Assembly (NCBI GenBank): GCA_024628785.1
Contig: CP102405.1
Span: forward strand, 868,001 to 932,000
Reading direction: 5' to 3'
DNA from: Fusobacteria bacterium ZRK30
GTDB taxonomy: Bacteria; Fusobacteriota; Fusobacteriia; Fusobacteriales; Fusobacteriaceae
DNA length: 64,000 bases
Below are positions 1 through 23,517 of this stretch, piece after piece. A model generated the notes under the pieces. That model searched no databases. It was given only the letters and a program-made list of their open reading frames with translations, and was not told where the DNA came from. The first letter of the stretch is position 1. The number at the start of each line of letters is the position of its first letter. The position numbers and the translations under genes were made by a program.

Positions 1-1304
1 TTGACGTATCTATCTTAGAGATCGGAGACGGTGTAGTAGAAGTATTATCAACATCTGGAAACAACCATTTAGGTGGAGATAACTTTGATAAAGCAGTAAT
101 TAACTGGTTAGAATCAGAATTCAAAAAAGAAACTGGATTAGACCTTTCTAACGATAAGATGGCAGTACAAAGATTAAAAGATGCAGCTGAAAAAGCGAAG
201 AAAGAATTATCAACAATGATGGAAACTCCTATATCATTACCATTTATCACAATGGATGCTACAGGACCAAAACATTTAGAGATGAAACTTACTCGTGCTA
301 AATTCAATGAATTAACAGCTGACTTAGTAGAAGCTACAAAAGAACCAGTAAGAATAGCTCTTAAAGATGCAGGATTAACTCCTTCAGATATCGATGAGAT
401 CTTATTAGTAGGTGGATCTACAAGAATACCGGCAGTACAAGAATGGGTAGAATCATTCTTAGCTAAATCTCCTAACAAAGGAATCAATCCTGATGAAGTA
501 GTAGCAGCAGGAGCAGCAATCCAAGGTGGAGTATTAATGGGAGACGTTAAAGACGTATTATTATTAGACGTAACTCCATTATCACTAGGAATCGAAACTT
601 TAGGTGGAGTATTTACTAAGATGATAGAAAAGAACACAACTATACCTGTAAAGAAATCACAAGTTTACTCTACAGCTGTAGACAATCAACCGGCAGTATC
701 AATCAACGTATTCCAAGGGGAAAGATCAAAGGCTGCAGATAACCATAAATTAGGAGACTTCAACTTAGAAGGAATCCCAGCAGCACCAAGAGGAGTACCT
801 CAAATCGAAGTAACATTTGATATTGATGCAAACGGTATCGTACATGTAACTGCAAAAGATTTAGGAACTGGAAAAGAAAACAAGGTAACTATCACAGGAT
901 CTACAAACCTTTCAGAGGAAGAGATCGAAAGAATGAAAAAAGATGCTGAAGCTCATGAAGCTGAAGATAAGAAATTCAAAGATCTAGTAGAAGCTAGAAA
1001 CAAAGCTGATATGATCATCTCATCTACTGAGAAATCTATAGAAGAGCATGGAGATAAAGTAACAGAAGAGGAAAAAACTGCTATTAAAGAAGCGGTAGAA
1101 GGATTAAAAGCTGTTAAAGACGGAGAAGATAAAGAAGCTATCGATACAGCAATGAAGACTTTAGAAGAAAAAGCTCATAAATTAGCTGAAGAGATATATA
1201 AAGAAGCTCAAGCAAAAGCTCAAGCTGAACAAGGTGGAGCTGCTCAAGGCGGAACTGAAAATAAAGCCGATGAAGATGTAGCAGAGGCAGAAGTAGTAGA
1301 CTAA
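1..1304 (+). CDS. dnaK: Chaperone protein DnaK (Hsp70), 3' part
   Basis: This is the carboxy-terminal two thirds of the Hsp70 chaperone, which uses ATP to bind and release unfolded proteins together with DnaJ and GrpE. The reading frame is open from the left edge, so the start lies outside the window. The fragment opens inside the nucleotide-binding domain ([10 protein letters not shown]), continues through [13 protein letters not shown], and reaches the substrate-binding domain at [14 protein letters not shown]. It ends in a helical lid and a glutamine/alanine-rich acidic tail (EAEVVD). Codon choice is strongly biased, as in highly expressed genes. A terminator follows directly, so dnaJ 1.6 kb downstream is probably not on the same main transcript. 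Confidence 0.98.
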
Positions 1305-1330
1305 GAATAAGAGTGGGTTTGAAAAAAATA

Positions 1331-1370
1331 AGAGGGGGCTAAGCTTATAGGGTTTAGCCTCTCTTCTTGT
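1331..1370 (+). terminator. Intrinsic terminator after dnaK
   Basis: A GC-containing inverted repeat (AGAGGGGGCTAA paired with TTAGCCTCTCT) is followed by a T-rich run 27 bases after the dnaK stop codon. Confidence 0.75.
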
Positions 1371-1410
1371 ATGGTATGGAAATCTATATTTTTCATATAC
1401 ATGAATTGGT

Positions 1411-1422
1411 GTCCGAAAGGAC
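1411..1422 (+). other. Small GNRA-tetraloop hairpin in the acetyltransferase leader
   Basis: GTCC-GAAA-GGAC forms a 4-bp stem closed by a GAAA loop, 43 bases before the GNAT start codon. It is too short to assign to a riboswitch class, and no wider conserved fold was recognised. Confidence 0.3.
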
Positions 1423-1464
1423 GGATGAAGCTAAAAAATGACATGAAATAGGGGGATACAATAG

Positions 1465-1917
1465 ATGTTAAAATTAGAGAGAATGTCAGAATCGGACTTT
1501 AATATGGTAAAGGGAAAGATGATTGCTGATTACGCTAAAGACAAAGTAAAGGTTGGACACTGGTCGGATAGAGATGCTTTAGAGTTATCTAAGGAAGCGT
1601 TGGATAAGATTTTAAGTGAGGGAATAGCTACTCCTAACCACTATTTGTTAAATGCCTATGAAGATGAAGTTAAGGTAGGATTTGTTTGGATGAATGAATT
1701 TAACAATGAGATGTTTGTAAATAACACTTGTATCTTTGAAGAGTTTCAGGAAAAAGAATATGAGTTGCAGTTCATTGAGTTAATTGAAGAAAAGGCCAAT
1801 GAGTTGGATATAAAAAAAATAAATGTCCATTCATATGGATATAATGAAAAAAATATAGCAGTATACAAGAAAATGGGATATGATATAACTGATATATATT
1901 TAAACAAAGGAATATAA
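1465..1917 (+). CDS. GNAT-family N-acetyltransferase
   Basis: A 150-residue protein of the size and pattern of single-domain GNAT acetyltransferases, which move an acetyl group from acetyl-CoA to an amine. The C-terminal half carries the usual signature: a strand and helix with many Glu (about residues 90-112), then INVHSYGYNEKNIAVYKKMGY, where the aromatic/NxxA(I)xxYxKxGF-type motif closes the acetyl-CoA site. The substrate cannot be read from the sequence. The start is chosen from the AGGGGG purine run 9 bases upstream of the ATG. It sits between dnaK and dnaJ with no link to chaperone function that I can see. A small GNRA-loop hairpin precedes it (1411-1422). Confidence 0.85.
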   Translation: MLKLERMSESDFNMVKGKMIADYAKDKVKVGHWSDRDALELSKEALDKILSEGIATPNHYLLNAYEDEVKVGFVWMNEFNNEMFVNNTCIFEEFQEKEYELQFIELIEEKANELDIKKINVHSYGYNEKNIAVYKKMGYDITDIYLNKGI

Positions 1918-1952
1918 CTATAAAAGTTGGACTTTGAATGAGGAGAATAACT

Positions 1953-2831
1953 ATGGGATATAAGATAACCGATGGAATCGCAGAGGCTGTTATAGATAGT
2001 CATGGTGCAGAGTTAAAAAGTTTAAAACTTTTAAAAAATAATGAAGAATTTATGTGGAATGCTGATCCTGAATTTTGGGGACGAACTTCACCTGTATTGT
2101 TTCCTATTGTAGGGGGATTAAAAGATGGGAGATATAGTTACCATGGAACAACCTATGAGATGGGACAGCATGGATTTGCAAGGGACAATAAATTTAAGGT
2201 TATTTCCCACGGGGAAACTAAGATAGTTTTTTTATTTGAGTCAAATGAGGAAACATTACAAAATTATCCATTTGAGTTTAAATTTTATATGGAGTACAGT
2301 CTGGAAAATGGGTGTCTATCCATTGAATATAAGGTGGAAAATTTATCTTCTGAAGAGATGTATTTTTCAATAGGAGCACATCCTGCCTTTAGTACTCCTG
2401 TAGATCAGGATATTCAAATTTCAGATTATTATCTGGAATTTGAAAAAAATGAAACAGCTTCAATACTTCCTTTAGAGGGGAGAAATATATCTAGAAATAC
2501 CATGAAATTTTTAGAAGACAGTAAAAAAATAGAGTTAAGCAAAGATCTGTTTAAAAATGATGCCCTTATATTTAAAGGTTTGGATTCTAAAAATGTATCT
2601 TTAAAGTGTAAAAAAAATACCAGAGTTGTAACTATGGACTATAGTAACTTTGAATATATTGCATTCTGGAATAAGGTAGGAGCAGAATTTATATGTCTGG
2701 AGCCCTGGAATGGAATAGCAGATTTTATCGATGCAAGTGGCAGATTAGAGGAAAAAGATGGGATTCTTAAATTAGAGGGTCAGGGAAAATATAAAGCTAG
2801 TCTAAAGATAAAGGTTGAAGGTCAGAAATAA
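1953..2831 (+). CDS. Aldose 1-epimerase family protein (LacX-like)
   Basis: A 292-residue beta-sandwich protein of the galactose mutarotase superfamily, LacX-like branch. Members interconvert anomers of aldoses or bind sugar phosphates in the cytoplasm. Recognisable blocks are HGAELKSL near the N terminus, FWGRTSPVLFPIVG at about residue 43, GQHGFARD at about residue 71 with the family histidine, and FSIGAHPAF at about residue 147 with the second histidine. The invariant acidic residue probably lies in FICLEPWNG. The ATG at 1953 is preferred because AGGAG lies 7 bases before it. An ATG 15 bases upstream in frame overlaps that ribosome site. The substrate is unknown, and the position between dnaK and dnaJ gives no functional hint. 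Confidence 0.85.
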   Translation: MGYKITDGIAEAVIDSHGAELKSLKLLKNNEEFMWNADPEFWGRTSPVLFPIVGGLKDGRYSYHGTTYEMGQHGFARDNKFKVISHGETKIVFLFESNEETLQNYPFEFKFYMEYSLENGCLSIEYKVENLSSEEMYFSIGAHPAFSTPVDQDIQISDYYLEFEKNETASILPLEGRNISRNTMKFLEDSKKIELSKDLFKNDALIFKGLDSKNVSLKCKKNTRVVTMDYSNFEYIAFWNKVGAEFICLEPWNGIADFIDASGRLEEKDGILKLEGQGKYKASLKIKVEGQK

Positions 2832-2925
2832 CTGATAATTAAGATCTATATTTAAAAAATAGAAATTGAATCACTAAACAACTGTAAATTGGCGGCAAAA
2901 AGAAGAAGAAAAAAAGGAGAAAAAA

Positions 2926-4068
2926 ATGTCTAAAAAAGATTTTTATGAAACGCTGGGAATACCTAAAGGAGCCAGTGAAAGTGAGATAAAAAAAGCCTAT
3001 AGAAAAAAAGCTATGAAATATCACCCGGATAAATATAGTAATGCAAGTGCAAAGGAAAAAGACGATGCAGAGCATAAATTTAAAGAGGTAAATGATGCAT
3101 ATCAAGTTCTTTCAGATGGAGAGAAAAGATCTAAATATGACAGGTTTGGTCATGATGCATTCTCCCAAGGAGGAGGCGGAGCTGGAGGCTTTGGCGGATT
3201 CGGAGGATTCGGAGGAGCCGGAGGTTTTGAAGATATTTTTGGTTCATTCTTTGGAGGCGGAGGTTCCCGTGGTCCCCGTGTAGAACCTGGGGCAGATCTT
3301 AGATATACTGTAGAAATTACCCTTGAAGAAGCTGCGAAGGGGACAGAAAAAGAGGTTAAATACTTCAGGAAAGGTGAATGTCATACTTGTCACGGAAGTG
3401 GAGCCAAGCCGGGAACAAGTAAGAAAACCTGCCCAAAATGTAACGGTAATGGAAGGATAAAAGAGATCCAGAGAACTATGTTTGGAAACTTTGAAAATGT
3501 AGTCGAATGTGATAACTGTCATGGTCAGGGAGAGGTTCCTACAGAAAAATGTCCTACTTGTCATGGAACAGGGGTAGAGAAGGAAAAAGTAGAAAAACAT
3601 GTGAAGATTCCGGCTGGAATAGATGATGGTCAAAGACTTAGATTAGGCGGGCTGGGAGAAGCCAGTGAAAATGGCGGACCAAATGGAGACTTGTATCTAT
3701 TTATAAGGGTAAAAGAACATGCTATATTTGAAAGGCACGGATCGGATATAGTTTGTGAAGTACCAATCTCTTATACTAAGGCTGTTTTAGGAGGAGATAT
3801 ACAAATTCCTACCCTGGATGAAGCGATAAAGATAAAAATTCCAGAGGGAACTCAAACTGGAAAGGTATTCAGACTTCGTGGAAAGGGAATGCCTAGTACA
3901 AGAGGTGGAAGAGTAGGAGATGAATTGGTAAAAGTTGTAGTTGAAACTCCTACAAAACTAAATTCAAAACAAAAAGAATTATTAAAAGCCTTTGAAGATA
4001 GTTTAAAGGATAAAAACACAGGTATGAAAGAAGGATTTTTTGATAAATTAAAAGATCTATTTAAATAG
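2926..4068 (+). CDS. dnaJ: Chaperone protein DnaJ (Hsp40)
   Basis: A type I J-domain co-chaperone of 380 residues that stimulates the DnaK ATPase and delivers substrates. The J domain (residues 1-70) carries the essential HPD motif at 33-35. A Gly/Phe-rich linker with repeated GGFGGFGG spans about 78-115. All four CxxCxGxG zinc-binding repeats are intact (CHTCHGSG, CPKCNGNG, CDNCHGQG, CPTCHGTG), followed by the substrate-binding beta domains and the C-terminal dimerisation segment. The ATG follows AAAGGAG at good spacing. No promoter is obvious in the 94 bases upstream, so the gene may be read from upstream of the epimerase. A terminator follows. Confidence 0.98.
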   Translation: MSKKDFYETLGIPKGASESEIKKAYRKKAMKYHPDKYSNASAKEKDDAEHKFKEVNDAYQVLSDGEKRSKYDRFGHDAFSQGGGGAGGFGGFGGFGGAGGFEDIFGSFFGGGGSRGPRVEPGADLRYTVEITLEEAAKGTEKEVKYFRKGECHTCHGSGAKPGTSKKTCPKCNGNGRIKEIQRTMFGNFENVVECDNCHGQGEVPTEKCPTCHGTGVEKEKVEKHVKIPAGIDDGQRLRLGGLGEASENGGPNGDLYLFIRVKEHAIFERHGSDIVCEVPISYTKAVLGGDIQIPTLDEAIKIKIPEGTQTGKVFRLRGKGMPSTRGGRVGDELVKVVVETPTKLNSKQKELLKAFEDSLKDKNTGMKEGFFDKLKDLFK

Positions 4069-4080
4069 AGATAAAAAAAT

Positions 4081-4112
4081 AAAAAAGGGGAAGGAAATCT
4101 TCTCCTTTTTTT
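4081..4112 (+). terminator. Intrinsic terminator after dnaJ
   Basis: AAAAAAGGGGAAG pairs with CTTCTCCTTTTTTT with one G-T wobble, and a T run follows. Confidence 0.8.
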
Positions 4113-4213
4113 ATATATCTTAATATAGGTATGAAAAAAATAAGGTTGAGAATTTAAAGTTTAATTGTGCAGGGGTTTAATGAAGGATTATTCTTGGTTT
4201 TAACAAAAAAAAT

Positions 4214-4242
4214 TTTAAAAATGTGAAAGATAGTGCTATACT
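4214..4242 (+). promoter_or_regulatory. Possible sigma-70 promoter for yajC
   Basis: TATACT (4237-4242) lies 35 bases before the yajC start codon, with TTTAAA 17 bases upstream as a weak -35. The -35 match is poor. Confidence 0.4.
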
Positions 4243-4276
4243 TTAGATAATAAAACTTAACAAAAAGGAGTACGAT

Positions 4277-4579
4277 ATGTTTAGTAATTTTTTAGCTTTT
4301 GGAGCGGAACAAGCAGGACAAACATCTGGTTACACAGGGATGGCAGTAACACTTATTATATGGGGGGCAATTTTTTATTTGTTTTTAATCAGACCGAATA
4401 AAAAGAAGCAAAAAAAACATGCTGACATGATAGATGCCTTACAGCCTGGAAAAGATGTTATAACTGCCGGGGGAATCAAAGGCGAAGTTGTATCTGTAAG
4501 CGATCAATATATTGTGATCAGAGTAGATAAAGGAGTTAGACTTACTTTTTCAAAAGACTCTATAAGAAAAGTATTATAG
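4277..4579 (+). CDS. yajC: Preprotein translocase subunit YajC
   Basis: A 100-residue single-span inner membrane protein that associates with SecDF and the SecYEG translocon. After a short periplasmic N terminus there is one hydrophobic helix (about residues 21-40, MAVTLIIWGAIFYLFLI). The hallmark RPNKKKQKKHADMI basic stretch follows, then the cytoplasmic beta domain (AGGIKGEVVSVSDQYIVIRV). AAAGGAG precedes the ATG. secD and secF, often next to yajC, are not here; the following gene is a lipoprotein instead. secA is 50 kb further on. Confidence 0.95.
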   Translation: MFSNFLAFGAEQAGQTSGYTGMAVTLIIWGAIFYLFLIRPNKKKQKKHADMIDALQPGKDVITAGGIKGEVVSVSDQYIVIRVDKGVRLTFSKDSIRKVL

Positions 4580-4614
4580 TGATCAGAAGTAATTCTAATA
4601 ATAGGAGGTTAATC

Positions 4615-5115
4615 ATGAAGAAGATAATGTTAATTTTAGCTATAACAGGAGTATTGATAAGCTGTTCTAGCAAAGATGAGACTGTAAAAAAAGAAACAAC
4701 AGTTGAAGTGGTGGCACCTCAAGAAGAGGTTGTTGCTCCGGTAGAGACAACAGAAGTAGAAGCTACTGAAGTAGTTACAGTAGAGGTAGAAAAACCAGCT
4801 TTAACCGATGAGGACTATAAGTCGGTATCGGAACCGGCAAAAAAAACGGTGAAAAAGCCAGTGAAACAAACTAAACCTGCTCCTAAACCTGTAGAGAAAG
4901 AAGAGACAGCACCAGTAGAAGCAGTTATGGAAACTTCTGTAGATGACACTGTAGATTCAGATGTGGACAAGCAGATAGCAAAGACAGAAACTGAGACTAA
5001 AGCTGTAGAAGTAGAAACTCCAGTTGAAGAAAGTAGCAGCAATAAAACTCTTTTTGGAATTTTAGGAGCTATATTAGTAGCAGCAGCAGCAGTATTTGTA
5101 TTTAAAAAGAAATAA
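4615..5115 (+). CDS. Val/Glu/Pro/Lys-rich lipoprotein with a C-terminal membrane anchor
   Basis: A 166-residue protein of unknown function. It starts with a lipoprotein signal peptide (lipobox LISC, lipidated Cys17). A low-complexity central region of Glu, Val, Thr, Pro and Lys follows, including a KKTVKKPVKQTKPAPKPV segment at about residues 78-95. The C terminus has a hydrophobic helix (LFGILGAILVAAAAVFVF) and a final KKK. It can therefore be anchored at both ends, with a disordered spacer between, resembling a periplasm-spanning tether or a protein with a sorting-type tail. The ATG at 4615 is chosen because TAGGAGG precedes it; an in-frame ATG at 4579 overlaps the yajC stop and lacks a ribosome site. 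Probably co-transcribed with yajC. Confidence 0.7.
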   Translation: MKKIMLILAITGVLISCSSKDETVKKETTVEVVAPQEEVVAPVETTEVEATEVVTVEVEKPALTDEDYKSVSEPAKKTVKKPVKQTKPAPKPVEKEETAPVEAVMETSVDDTVDSDVDKQIAKTETETKAVEVETPVEESSSNKTLFGILGAILVAAAAVFVFKKK

Positions 5116-19468: not shown

Positions 19469-19496
19469 AGGAGATGACCTAGGTCATCTCCTTTTT
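19469..19496 (+). terminator. Intrinsic terminator after rpsA (repeat family copy 1)
   Basis: AGGAGATGACCTAGGTCATC is the core of a perfect palindrome completed by TCC and a T run. Near-identical hairpins occur at 21655 and 23489. Confidence 0.9.
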
Positions 19497-19562: not shown

Positions 19563-19607
19563 TTCCATATAACGGAAAAAATGTGGAGAACTATAAGATA
19601 CTATAAT
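19563..19607 (+). promoter_or_regulatory. Crp/Fnr-type operator and promoter, copy 1 (upstream of the regulator)
   Basis: The 15-mer TTCCATATAACGGAA (19563-19577) is an inverted repeat of the form TTCC-N7-GGAA. A -10 candidate TACTAT starts 29 bases after its centre, overlapped by a consensus TATAAT three bases further on. The same motif and distance recur before the next two genes. Confidence 0.6.
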
Positions 19608-19675
19608 ACTATAGAAAAATAAAATGCCAAAATTATTATGATAAACTGATCAGTAACTAAAGAATGTTGATATAA

Positions 19676-19740
19676 AACTCGGAGTAACAAAAAGAATGTA
19701 GAGAAAAAATCTATAAATTTTTGTTACCTCTGAGTTTTTG
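19676..19740 (+). terminator. Terminator hairpin in the leader of the Crp/Fnr-family gene
   Basis: AACTCGGAGTAACAAAAA pairs with TTTTTGTTACCTCTGAGTT (one mismatch and one bulge) and runs into TTTTTGTTTT. It ends about 10 bases before the ribosome site of the regulator. It would either attenuate the gene or end a roughly 130-base small RNA started at the promoter near 19600. Confidence 0.8.
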
Positions 19741-19761
19741 TTTTAAAAAGGTGGTGGCAAA

Positions 19762-20388
19762 TTGAATAAAGAAGATTTTTTTAAGACAGCTAAAAATGAT
19801 GAATATCAAATAAAAACTTTTAAAAAAGGGGAATTTATCTATACTTCAGGTTGGGATAGAAAGGTTGGGTATATTTTAAATGGAGAAGTATTAGTTTCTA
19901 AACATCTTTCCGAAAGGATAATACTTTATCCAATTGGATTTAAGTCAGGTGAATTTATGGGGATTAATTTATATTTCTTTGATTCCAACAATGATAATGT
20001 TTTTGATTGTTTAGCTAAATACGATGATACGAAAATAGCGTTTTTAGAAAAAAAATTATTTGAAAAATTGTTAGAGAGAGCTGATTTTTTGAAGATGTTA
20101 ATCTATGACAACGAGAAAATAATATTGAATGCAATAGGATTAACGATGTTTTTAGCTCACGGTCCTTTGGGATATTTTGCCTATATCTTGGATATAACGG
20201 CTATAGAGGATAAGGTTTTTTATGAAAGATTTTTAGATTATTGTGACTATTTAAATATTAATAAAACAAGACTTTATGAGATAACCAATGAATTGATTGA
20301 GGAGCAGGTTATTGTCAAAGAAAGAAAATATATAGAAATAATAGATAGAGATAGGTTAAGGGAATATTTTGAAGGGAATAAAAACTAA
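19762..20388 (+). CDS. Crp/Fnr-family transcriptional regulator
   Basis: A 208-residue DNA-binding regulator. Residues about 15-110 form a cyclic-nucleotide-binding-type beta barrel (FKKGEFIYTSGWDRKVGYILNGEV, then FKSGEFMGINLYF). There is no cysteine cluster of the FNR type, so oxygen sensing by Fe-S is unlikely. A long helix follows, then a C-terminal winged helix with recognition helix INKTRLYEITNELIEEQVI. Translation starts at TTG after AAGGTGGTGG. It is closest to YeiL-like members of unknown ligand. Its promoter and those of the next two genes share a palindrome, so it probably controls all three. Confidence 0.85.
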   Translation: MNKEDFFKTAKNDEYQIKTFKKGEFIYTSGWDRKVGYILNGEVLVSKHLSERIILYPIGFKSGEFMGINLYFFDSNNDNVFDCLAKYDDTKIAFLEKKLFEKLLERADFLKMLIYDNEKIILNAIGLTMFLAHGPLGYFAYILDITAIEDKVFYERFLDYCDYLNINKTRLYEITNELIEEQVIVKERKYIEIIDRDRLREYFEGNKN

Positions 20389-20391
20389 AAA

Positions 20392-20433
20392 ATCCGTTTT
20401 TCGGAATTTCAGATTCCATTTATAAGTTATAAT
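20392..20433 (+). promoter_or_regulatory. Crp/Fnr-type operator and promoter, copy 2
   Basis: ATCCGTTTTTCGGAA (20392-20406) is followed by TATAAT (20428-20433) exactly 29 bases from the palindrome centre. This puts the operator near -41 and over the -35 position, the geometry of class II activation by Crp/Fnr proteins. The -35 itself is poor, which also fits activator dependence. Confidence 0.7.
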
Positions 20434-20470
20434 CATCCTGTAAAAATAATATAATTTATGGAGGGATGAA

Positions 20471-20959
20471 GTGAAAAAAATAGTATTAATATTAATGTTG
20501 GTAATAGGTTCTATTTCTATGGCAAATGGTATAGATGAGAAAAATACAGGTGCAAGATTAAATGTTTTATTCTGGACAGCAGGTGGAACTTTAGACGGTG
20601 AAGTAGAGATGGGAGAAGGGAATAAAACAAGAGACTACAACGGATTAGATTTAAATTTATTATCATTATCTAAATCAAAAGATTTTACCGGATATCAGTT
20701 CTCAATTTTTGGAATGAATAAAGTTGATGGAGACTTTACTGGTTTAGGTCAAGGAGCAATTAACTACCATAAAGGGAAAAGTGAGGGAGTACAGGTTGGG
20801 ACAATCAATGTAGCTCAAAATATTAAAGGAGCCCAGTGGGGATTGATCAATACAACAAAAAAATTAGATGGGTTTCAAATAGGTCTAGTAAATTATTCGC
20901 CTGATGGATTTTTACCGATCTTTCCATTTTTTAACATTTCAAAATCAATGATTGATTAG
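20471..20959 (+). CDS. Exported protein with GxQxGxxN repeats
   Basis: A 162-residue protein of unknown function with a signal peptide (MKKIVLILMLVIGSISMANG). The C-terminal half repeats a turn of the form GxQxGxxN: EGVQVGTINVAQN, KGAQWGLINTTKK, DGFQIGLVNYSPDG, ending LPIFPFFNIS. Such repeats suggest a beta-roll or beta-solenoid. Similar proteins occur in Fusobacteria and other Gram-negatives, sometimes labelled PHA synthase without support. The GTG start is set by GGAGGG 5 bases upstream. It has its own promoter with the palindrome shared with the regulator before it. Confidence 0.7.
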   Translation: MKKIVLILMLVIGSISMANGIDEKNTGARLNVLFWTAGGTLDGEVEMGEGNKTRDYNGLDLNLLSLSKSKDFTGYQFSIFGMNKVDGDFTGLGQGAINYHKGKSEGVQVGTINVAQNIKGAQWGLINTTKKLDGFQIGLVNYSPDGFLPIFPFFNISKSMID

Positions 20960-21022
20960 TATATTTTCAAGAATTAATTCTTTTGGTTAGTATAGAAAAT
21001 TTATTGAGAGGAAAAATTAAAA

Positions 21023-21064
21023 CTCCGTTTTCCGGAAATTTTAAAATTAGTTATATGTTATAAT
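21023..21064 (+). promoter_or_regulatory. Crp/Fnr-type operator and promoter, copy 3
   Basis: CTCCGTTTTCCGGAA (21023-21037) precedes TATAAT (21059-21064), again with 29 bases from palindrome centre to -10 start, identical to copy 2. Confidence 0.7.
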
Positions 21065-21108: not shown

Positions 21109-21654
21109 ATGAAAAAAATTATAACAATATTATTTTTAATGATGGGATTGGCAAGTTATAGTGAGGAAGTAAGATTAGCTATACCGAGAGGAACTTCTGT
21201 AATGATAAAAACTGTCGATACTATAGATGGGAGTAAACACAATGCAGGACATAAATTTGCTGCAATATTAGAAGGAGATATAGTTATAGACAATAAAGTA
21301 GCTATAAAATCTGGAAGCAAAATCTATGGTACGGTTGTGGAATCTGTTCAGGCCGGTAGGTTGGTAGGGTCATCTAAACTAACTATTAAATTAACCCAGG
21401 TAATGGTAGATAACAGGCTGGTACATATATCTACGAACCAACTAAACTACACAGGTGAACAAGGGTCAGGAGCCAACACAGTGGGAAAAACTGCCAGAGC
21501 AGCAGCGATAGGTGGATTGATAGATGGCAGCAGTGGAGCAAAAACAGGAGCCAAAGTAGGATTAGGTGTGTCTGTACTCACAAAGGGAGGAGCCATAGGA
21601 ATTCCTAGAGATACATATCTGGATTTCACCTTTGATCAAGAAGTTTTAATATAA
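21109..21654 (+). CDS. Exported beta-rich protein with Gly-rich C-terminal segment
   Basis: A 181-residue exported protein with a signal peptide of about 18 residues (LFLMMGLASYS). The mature part matches a widespread uncharacterised family with blocks IPRGTSVMIKTVDTIDGSKHNAGHKF, AIKSGSKIYGTVVESVQAGRLVG and SKLTIKLTQV, a fold reminiscent of VirB10/TrbI C-terminal domains. A glycine/alanine-rich hydrophobic stretch (AAAIGGLIDGSSGAKTGAKVG) that could insert in a membrane follows, then IPRDTYLDFTFDQEVL. The function is unknown. It is preceded by GGAGGGG and by the third copy of the shared operator. Confidence 0.7.
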   Translation: MKKIITILFLMMGLASYSEEVRLAIPRGTSVMIKTVDTIDGSKHNAGHKFAAILEGDIVIDNKVAIKSGSKIYGTVVESVQAGRLVGSSKLTIKLTQVMVDNRLVHISTNQLNYTGEQGSGANTVGKTARAAAIGGLIDGSSGAKTGAKVGLGVSVLTKGGAIGIPRDTYLDFTFDQEVLI

Positions 21655-21681
21655 GGAGATGACTTAGGTCGTCTCTTTTTT
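21655..21681 (+). terminator. Intrinsic terminator (repeat family copy 2)
   Basis: GAGATGAC-TTAG-GTCGTCTC followed by a T run, starting directly after the stop codon. It is nearly identical to the hairpins at 19469 and 23489. Confidence 0.85.
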
Positions 21682-23488: not shown

Positions 23489-23517
23489 GGAGATGACTTA
23501 GGTCGTCTCTTTTTTTA
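23489..23517 (+). terminator. Intrinsic terminator after the AbgT-family gene (repeat family copy 3)
   Basis: GAGATGAC-TTAG-GTCGTCTC followed by seven T. It is identical in core sequence to copy 2 at 21655. Confidence 0.85.

What the first reader, a model, noticed from the sequence alone, without database searches (positions are those of the whole stretch)
19563..21064. Three promoters share one 15-bp palindrome at a fixed distance from the -10 box
TTCCATATAACGGAA (19563), ATCCGTTTTTCGGAA (20392) and CTCCGTTTTCCGGAA (21023) share the pattern NTCC-N7-GGAA. In copies 2 and 3 the palindrome centre is exactly 29 bases from the start of TATAAT; in copy 1 a TACTAT lies at the same distance. The first precedes a Crp/Fnr-family gene; the others precede two exported proteins of unknown function. 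A site centred near -41 with no good -35 is the class II activation layout of Crp/Fnr proteins. This looks like a small self-contained regulon in which an uncharacterised Crp/Fnr relative without Fe-S cysteines controls envelope proteins.
Basis: partly seen in the sequence, partly recalled or inferred. Interest (0 to 1): 0.75.

Follow-up and report, generated by a model that had tools for sequence, protein, structure and literature searches.

The report
Local Crp-family switch for envelope genes
A small gene regulator in a marine Fusobacteria relative (Psychrilyobacter) most likely controls only its own neighbouring surface-protein genes, through a 15-letter DNA mark kept at exactly the same distance from each promoter in several species; this is a convincing but fairly ordinary kind of local switch with a newly recognised DNA target.

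Summary
Confirmed. The three palindromes are where stated, each centred 29 bases before a -10-type hexamer (copies 2 and 3 TATAAT, copy 1 TACTAT). Genome-wide, TCC-N7-GGA at that distance from TATAAT occurs four times, two of them here. The layout is conserved: a close Psychrilyobacter relative has all three sites, two others have one or two, and Propionigenium maris (regulator 42-46% identical, DNA-reading helix invariant) has one, before an exported-protein operon beside its regulator. Between the two closest species the palindromes differ at 2 of 45 positions, the adjoining spacers at 16 of 39. A paralogous regulator shows the same layout with a changed outer base (GTCC-N7-GGAC) before an adjacent outer-membrane protein. 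A strictly local Crp/Fnr regulon with class II geometry is well supported; activation, binding and signal are inferred. Correction: copy 1 is not simply the regulator's promoter. In the relative it serves a DUF1254/DUF1214 lipoprotein gene that is deleted here, and a strong hairpin separates copy 1 from the regulator gene. Fusobacterial promoters generally have weak -35 boxes, so the missing -35 is weak evidence. New member of a known kind.

The parts
19563..19577 (+). Operator copy 1, TTCCATATAACGGAA; centre 19570 (-41 from a predicted start at 19611)
   Evidence: identical in G055 (0 of 15 differences), where it precedes a DUF1254/DUF1214 lipoprotein gene
19599..19607 (+). -10 region of copy 1: TACTAT at 19599-19604 (29 bases) or TATAAT at 19602-19607 (32 bases)
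19645..19653 (+). Deletion junction: about 1.1 kb with the DUF1254/DUF1214 gene present in G055 is missing here
   Evidence: blastn window vs G055, two collinear blocks ending at 19644 and starting at 19654; no homologue elsewhere in G000
19674..19738 (+). Strong hairpin with U-rich end between copy 1 and the regulator gene; terminator or attenuator
   Evidence: -35.1 kcal/mol for the 151-nt stretch, z -5.9; also in G055, z -6.1, after the lipoprotein gene
19762..20388 (+). Crp/Fnr-family regulator, 208 aa, TTG start
   Evidence: weak Pfam cNMP_binding and HTH_Crp_2; PDB profile hits NtcA, CRP; model pLDDT 87 matching CprK, NtcA, PrfA, Cmr
20392..20406 (+). Operator copy 2, ATCCGTTTTTCGGAA; starts 4 nt after the regulator stop codon
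20428..20433 (+). -10 TATAAT of copy 2
20471..20959 (+). Exported protein, 162 aa, LA_2272-type surface repeats, VC2662-like
   Evidence: NCBIfam LA_2272_repeat 46.6 bits (cut-off 25); VC2662_fam 84 bits, below cut-off 140
21023..21037 (+). Operator copy 3, CTCCGTTTTCCGGAA
21059..21064 (+). -10 TATAAT of copy 3, preceded by TGT (extended -10)
21109..21654 (+). Exported protein, 181 aa, no Pfam or NCBIfam family
   Evidence: homologues only in the 5 of 98 Fusobacteriota genomes that carry the regulator orthologue

Best explanation
The Crp/Fnr-family protein at 19762-20388 is a local transcription activator. As a dimer it binds TTCC(G)-N5-(C)GGAA operators centred at -41 and recruits RNA polymerase in the class II manner at the promoters of the envelope genes beside it: in this genome the VC2662/LA_2272-like protein and the 181-aa exported protein, and in relatives a DUF1254/DUF1214 lipoprotein, a further 141-aa exported protein, and in P. 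maris an operon of exported, partly chaperone/pilus-like proteins. In the window the lipoprotein gene was lost by a 1.1-kb deletion, leaving its promoter (copy 1) pointing, through a hairpin, at the regulator gene. Shown by sequence: sites, fixed spacing, conservation, predicted fold, local restriction. Inferred: that this protein is the one that binds, that it activates, and that an unknown signal (not an FNR-type Fe-S cluster) controls it.
For: Layout far above chance and confined to this locus. The same block (palindrome, 21 bases, -10) occurs at ten sites in four Psychrilyobacter genomes and P. maris with no length change. Between G000 and G055 the palindromes differ at 2 of 45 positions, spacers at 16 of 39 (Fisher 4e-5). 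Helix-turn-helix residues LN-x-NKTRLYEIT are invariant in all five orthologues although overall identity falls to 42%, matching the constant operator. Genomes without the orthologue (e.g. G058, 98% complete) have no TTCCG-N5-CGGAA site at this spacing. A paralogue, 25-29% identical, has GTCC-N7-GGAC centred 29 bases from TATTAT before an adjacent outer-membrane protein in three species. The fold is Crp/Fnr. In E. coli 19 of 23 FNR-activated promoters with known start have the site at -41.5 +/-4 (PMC3688515).
Against: No binding, transcript start or expression data. A site at -41 could also block RNA polymerase. Weak -35 boxes are normal in fusobacteria (PMC11005410), so their absence says little. 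Copy 1 fits less well (-10 ambiguous, operator TTCCA..CGGAA). The 181-aa homologues in P. maris carry no such site.
Confidence: 0.7

Rival explanations
1. The same regulator and operators, but acting as a local repressor: bound at -41 it blocks sigma region 4, and the signal releases it.
For: Site overlaps the -35 region; copy 3 has an extended -10 (TGTTATAAT) that could work without an activator; fusobacterial promoters often lack a good -35 (PMC11005410).
Against: Exact centring at -41 in all ten sites is what contact with RNA polymerase needs; a repressor tolerates more varied positions. In E. coli most FNR sites near -41.5 activate (PMC3688515).
Confidence: 0.17
2. The palindromes are operators for a different regulator encoded elsewhere; the Crp/Fnr gene is merely a neighbour or target.
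For: No direct binding evidence; the genome encodes several Crp/Fnr relatives.
Against: Sites occur only beside this gene, are missing where its orthologue is missing, and follow it into P. maris with another neighbourhood. A paralogue's site differs in the outer base.
Confidence: 0.08
3. Copies 2 and 3 look alike only because one promoter was duplicated recently; the palindrome has no role.
For: Copies 2 and 3 also share the stretch around and after the -10; in G056 one site stands between regulator and 181-aa gene, as if copies 2 and 3 had recombined.
Against: Spacers have diverged while palindromes have not; G059 and P. maris keep the layout in otherwise poorly alignable DNA.
Confidence: 0.04
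4. The palindromes act as RNA hairpins or weak terminators.
For: Copy 2 lies 4 nt after a stop codon; a terminator-like match was reported on the minus strand at copy 3.
Against: Only 4-5 bp arms; inner pair broken in copy 1, G059 and P. maris; arms conserved in sequence rather than by covariation; fixed distance to the -10 unexplained.
Confidence: 0.01

Closest known systems
FNR of E. coli (class II activated promoters)
   Same: Crp/Fnr fold; palindromic operator centred at about -41.5 (PMC3688515)
   Different: No FNR-type cysteine set; operator TTCCG-N5-CGGAA (15 bp) instead of TTGAT-N4-ATCAA (FNR consensus from memory); local, not global, regulon
CprK, NtcA, PrfA, Cmr (other non-Fe-S Crp/Fnr regulators)
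   Same: Best fold matches, E about 1e-9, TM 0.54-0.69; CprK is likewise a local regulator (from memory)
   Different: Only 12-18% sequence identity; different operators and ligands; signal here unknown
YeiL (PRK10402)
   Same: Only NCBIfam hit, over nearly the full length
   Different: 16.6 bits against a cut-off of 180; not a member
Psychrilyobacter paralogue at G000:C2:975783 (L038) with divergent beta-barrel protein
   Same: Related regulator, operator with TCC-N7-GGA core, centre 29 bases before TATTAT, next to an outer-membrane protein gene
   Different: Operator outer base G..C instead of T..A; 25-29% identical; recognition helix G(R/K)SMLYKLT instead of NKTRLYEIT; divergent arrangement

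Membership tests
Crp/Fnr superfamily | N-terminal cNMP-binding-like barrel, long dimer helix, C-terminal winged helix-turn-helix | tested here: met
   Profile hits to NtcA and CRP at E 7e-9 to 1e-5; model pLDDT 87 with helix 107-146 and HTH 159-180, fold matches are Crp/Fnr proteins. Pfam hits are below curated cut-offs.
FNR (Fe-S oxygen sensors) | Four cluster-ligating cysteines, three of them N-terminal | tested here: not met
   No N-terminal cysteines; only two cysteines in the protein
CRP (cAMP receptors) | Phosphate-binding Arg-Ser of the cAMP pocket | tested here: inconclusive
   No Arg-Ser visible in the aligned loop 63-84, but no residue alignment to CRP itself was printed
YeiL | NCBIfam PRK10402 score at or above cut-off | tested here: not met
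   16.6 bits vs 180
Class II Crp/Fnr-dependent promoter | Operator centred at about -41.5 from the mapped start | tested here: inconclusive
   Geometry met relative to the -10 hexamer; start sites not mapped
Class II Crp/Fnr-dependent promoter | Transcription depends on the bound regulator contacting RNA polymerase | not testable with these tools
   Needs mutant and in vitro transcription
LA_2272 surface repeat proteins (target 20471-20959) | Repeat model above cut-off | tested here: met
   46.6 bits vs 25

The most novel reading that the evidence does not exclude
A distinct Crp/Fnr subfamily in Psychrilyobacter and Propionigenium has multiplied into paralogues that each keep one private TCC-N7-GGA-type operator at -41 and control one adjacent, fast-changing set of surface proteins. 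They would work as interchangeable one-regulator, one-surface-module switches, with specificity set by a few recognition-helix residues and the outermost operator base.
Probability: 0.35. Interest if true: 0.6.

Novelty: new member of a known kind. Interest (0 to 1): 0.45.

Why it matters
It gives a testable operator and regulon for a Crp/Fnr group with no known signal, in a phylum with few characterised transcription factors. The paralogue pair (TTCC-N7-GGAA and GTCC-N7-GGAC) offers a ready test of how recognition-helix residues set specificity. The locus also shows targets being gained and lost under a fixed operator, including a promoter that outlived its gene.

Tried and rejected
First genome-contig scan with the single protein found no relatives; the second, with an alignment, found only Psychrilyobacter sp. 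SW_4_5 and P. maris. A first genome pattern with spacing one base too long gave hits of no value. CTCCACCATGTGGAG-TATAAT, shared by G000 and G055, lies inside glycine dehydrogenase coding sequence and was dropped. G056:C2:80359 is coding. P. maris homologues of the 181-aa protein carry no operator, so co-occurrence of regulator and 181-aa gene in five genomes is partly shared ancestry. The glycyl-radical-locus paralogue has a different palindrome near its own -10 in G000, imperfect in G055 and absent in G042 and G058: not used as support. Papers: no report found of a TTCCG-N5-CGGAA Crp/Fnr operator or a Fusobacteriota Crp/Fnr envelope regulon, in an open-access library only.

Full report
What is there. 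The three palindromes and their spacing are as described. If the first T of the -10 is at -12, all three centres fall at -41, with starts near 19611, 20440 and 21071. Copy 1 is the weakest: TACTAT sits at the right distance, a better TATAAT 3 bases further on, and the operator is TTCCA..CGGAA.

More than chance. TCC-N7-GGA-N22-TATAAT occurs twice in the window against 0.02 expected, and four times in the 3.6-Mb genome with none in the reversed control. Of the other two, one is inside a glycine dehydrogenase gene; the other (C2:967680) recurs almost unchanged in G058 and G060, which have no close orthologue of the regulator, so it is probably coding (not read). Allowing three mismatches over palindrome and -10, the counts are not far above the control's, and the local sites are the only real palindromes among the best matches in this genome. 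Other exact TCCG-N5-CGGAA and TTCCG-N6-GGAA places in the genome are nearly all inside open frames and have no -10 at the required distance. The regulon is therefore local.

Relatives. Orthologues of the regulator exist in G055 (92%), G056 (89%), G059 (61%) and P. maris (42-46%). G055 has all three sites, G056 one (regulator to 181-aa gene), G059 one there and a second, perfect TTCCGTTTTACGGAA on another contig before a 141-aa exported protein. P. maris has TTCCGCTCAGAGGAA 29 bases from TATAAT before a run of exported genes (one chaperone-like by weak PapD_N match, one DUF4402-like) that ends beside its regulator gene; its first start codon is some 250 bases downstream. All ten blocks have identical length. 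G000 and G055 differ at 2 of 45 palindrome positions and 16 of 39 in the adjoining 13-base spacers (Fisher 4e-5).

The regulator. Sequence and model put it in the Crp/Fnr superfamily, without FNR cysteines and outside YeiL. The DNA-reading segment LN-x-NKTRLYEIT is invariant in the five orthologues, in line with the constant operator.

An independent repeat of the layout. A second Psychrilyobacter regulator (25-29% identical) stands back to back with a beta-barrel protein gene (OMP_b-brl). Between them, in three species, is GTCCACC(A/C)ATTGGAC centred exactly 29 bases from TATTAT, again without a -35. The core TCC-N7-GGA is shared and the outermost pair changed. I read this as the strongest support for a family rule, but it remains an inference.

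A correction. In G055, copy 1 is the promoter of a 355-aa DUF1254/DUF1214 lipoprotein gene lying between copy 1 and the regulator. In the window that gene is cleanly missing; flanks align up to 19644 and from 19654, and no homologue is left in the genome. The hairpin that follows the gene in G055 is still present at 19674-19738, 23 bases before the regulator's start codon. So copy 1 may now give a short terminated RNA, or feed the regulator by read-through; G056 has no copy 1. 'The palindrome autoregulates crp' should not be asserted.

Mechanism. Most likely class II activation. For: the strict -41 position and E. coli FNR precedent (19 of 23 sites of activated promoters with known start at -41.5 +/-4, PMC3688515). 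Against using -35 quality: no site has a good -35, but F. nucleatum promoters generally show a weak -35 (PMC11005410). Repression is the main rival. The signal is unknown.

Verdict. Observation confirmed; interpretation largely right with the copy-1 correction; a new member of a known kind with a newly recognised operator.

Noticed in passing
window 19470-19490, 21655-21675, 23489-23509: The same terminator stem, GGAGATGAC(C/T)TAGGTC(A/G)TCTC, ends three different transcripts within 4 kb (none expected in shuffles); possibly a dispersed terminator repeat.
   Followed up: partly
window 19611-19738: The orphan copy-1 promoter followed by a strong hairpin could produce a short RNA of about 125 nt left over from a deleted lipoprotein gene.
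   Followed up: partly
L040 (G000:C5) about 6319: Another Crp/Fnr paralogue beside glycyl-radical-enzyme genes has GCGGTAATAAATGTTACCGA 29.5 bases before TATAAT upstream of itself; imperfect in G055, absent in G042 and G058.
   Followed up: partly
L052 (P. maris) minus strand about 5628: GTCTAGTGGGTAGAC lies just after another Crp/Fnr paralogue, 30 bases before TATTAT, with an exported protein gene about 600 bases further on.
   Followed up: partly
L048 (G000:C1:779000-793000), L049: At least three Crp/Fnr paralogues lie within about 5 kb of each other; the group has clearly multiplied in this genus.
   Followed up: no
L032 (G056), reverse complement 311-4819: In G056 a 1502-aa autotransporter-like protein gene takes the place upstream of the regulator where other species have the S1 protein and lipoprotein genes; no operator seen before it.
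   Followed up: no
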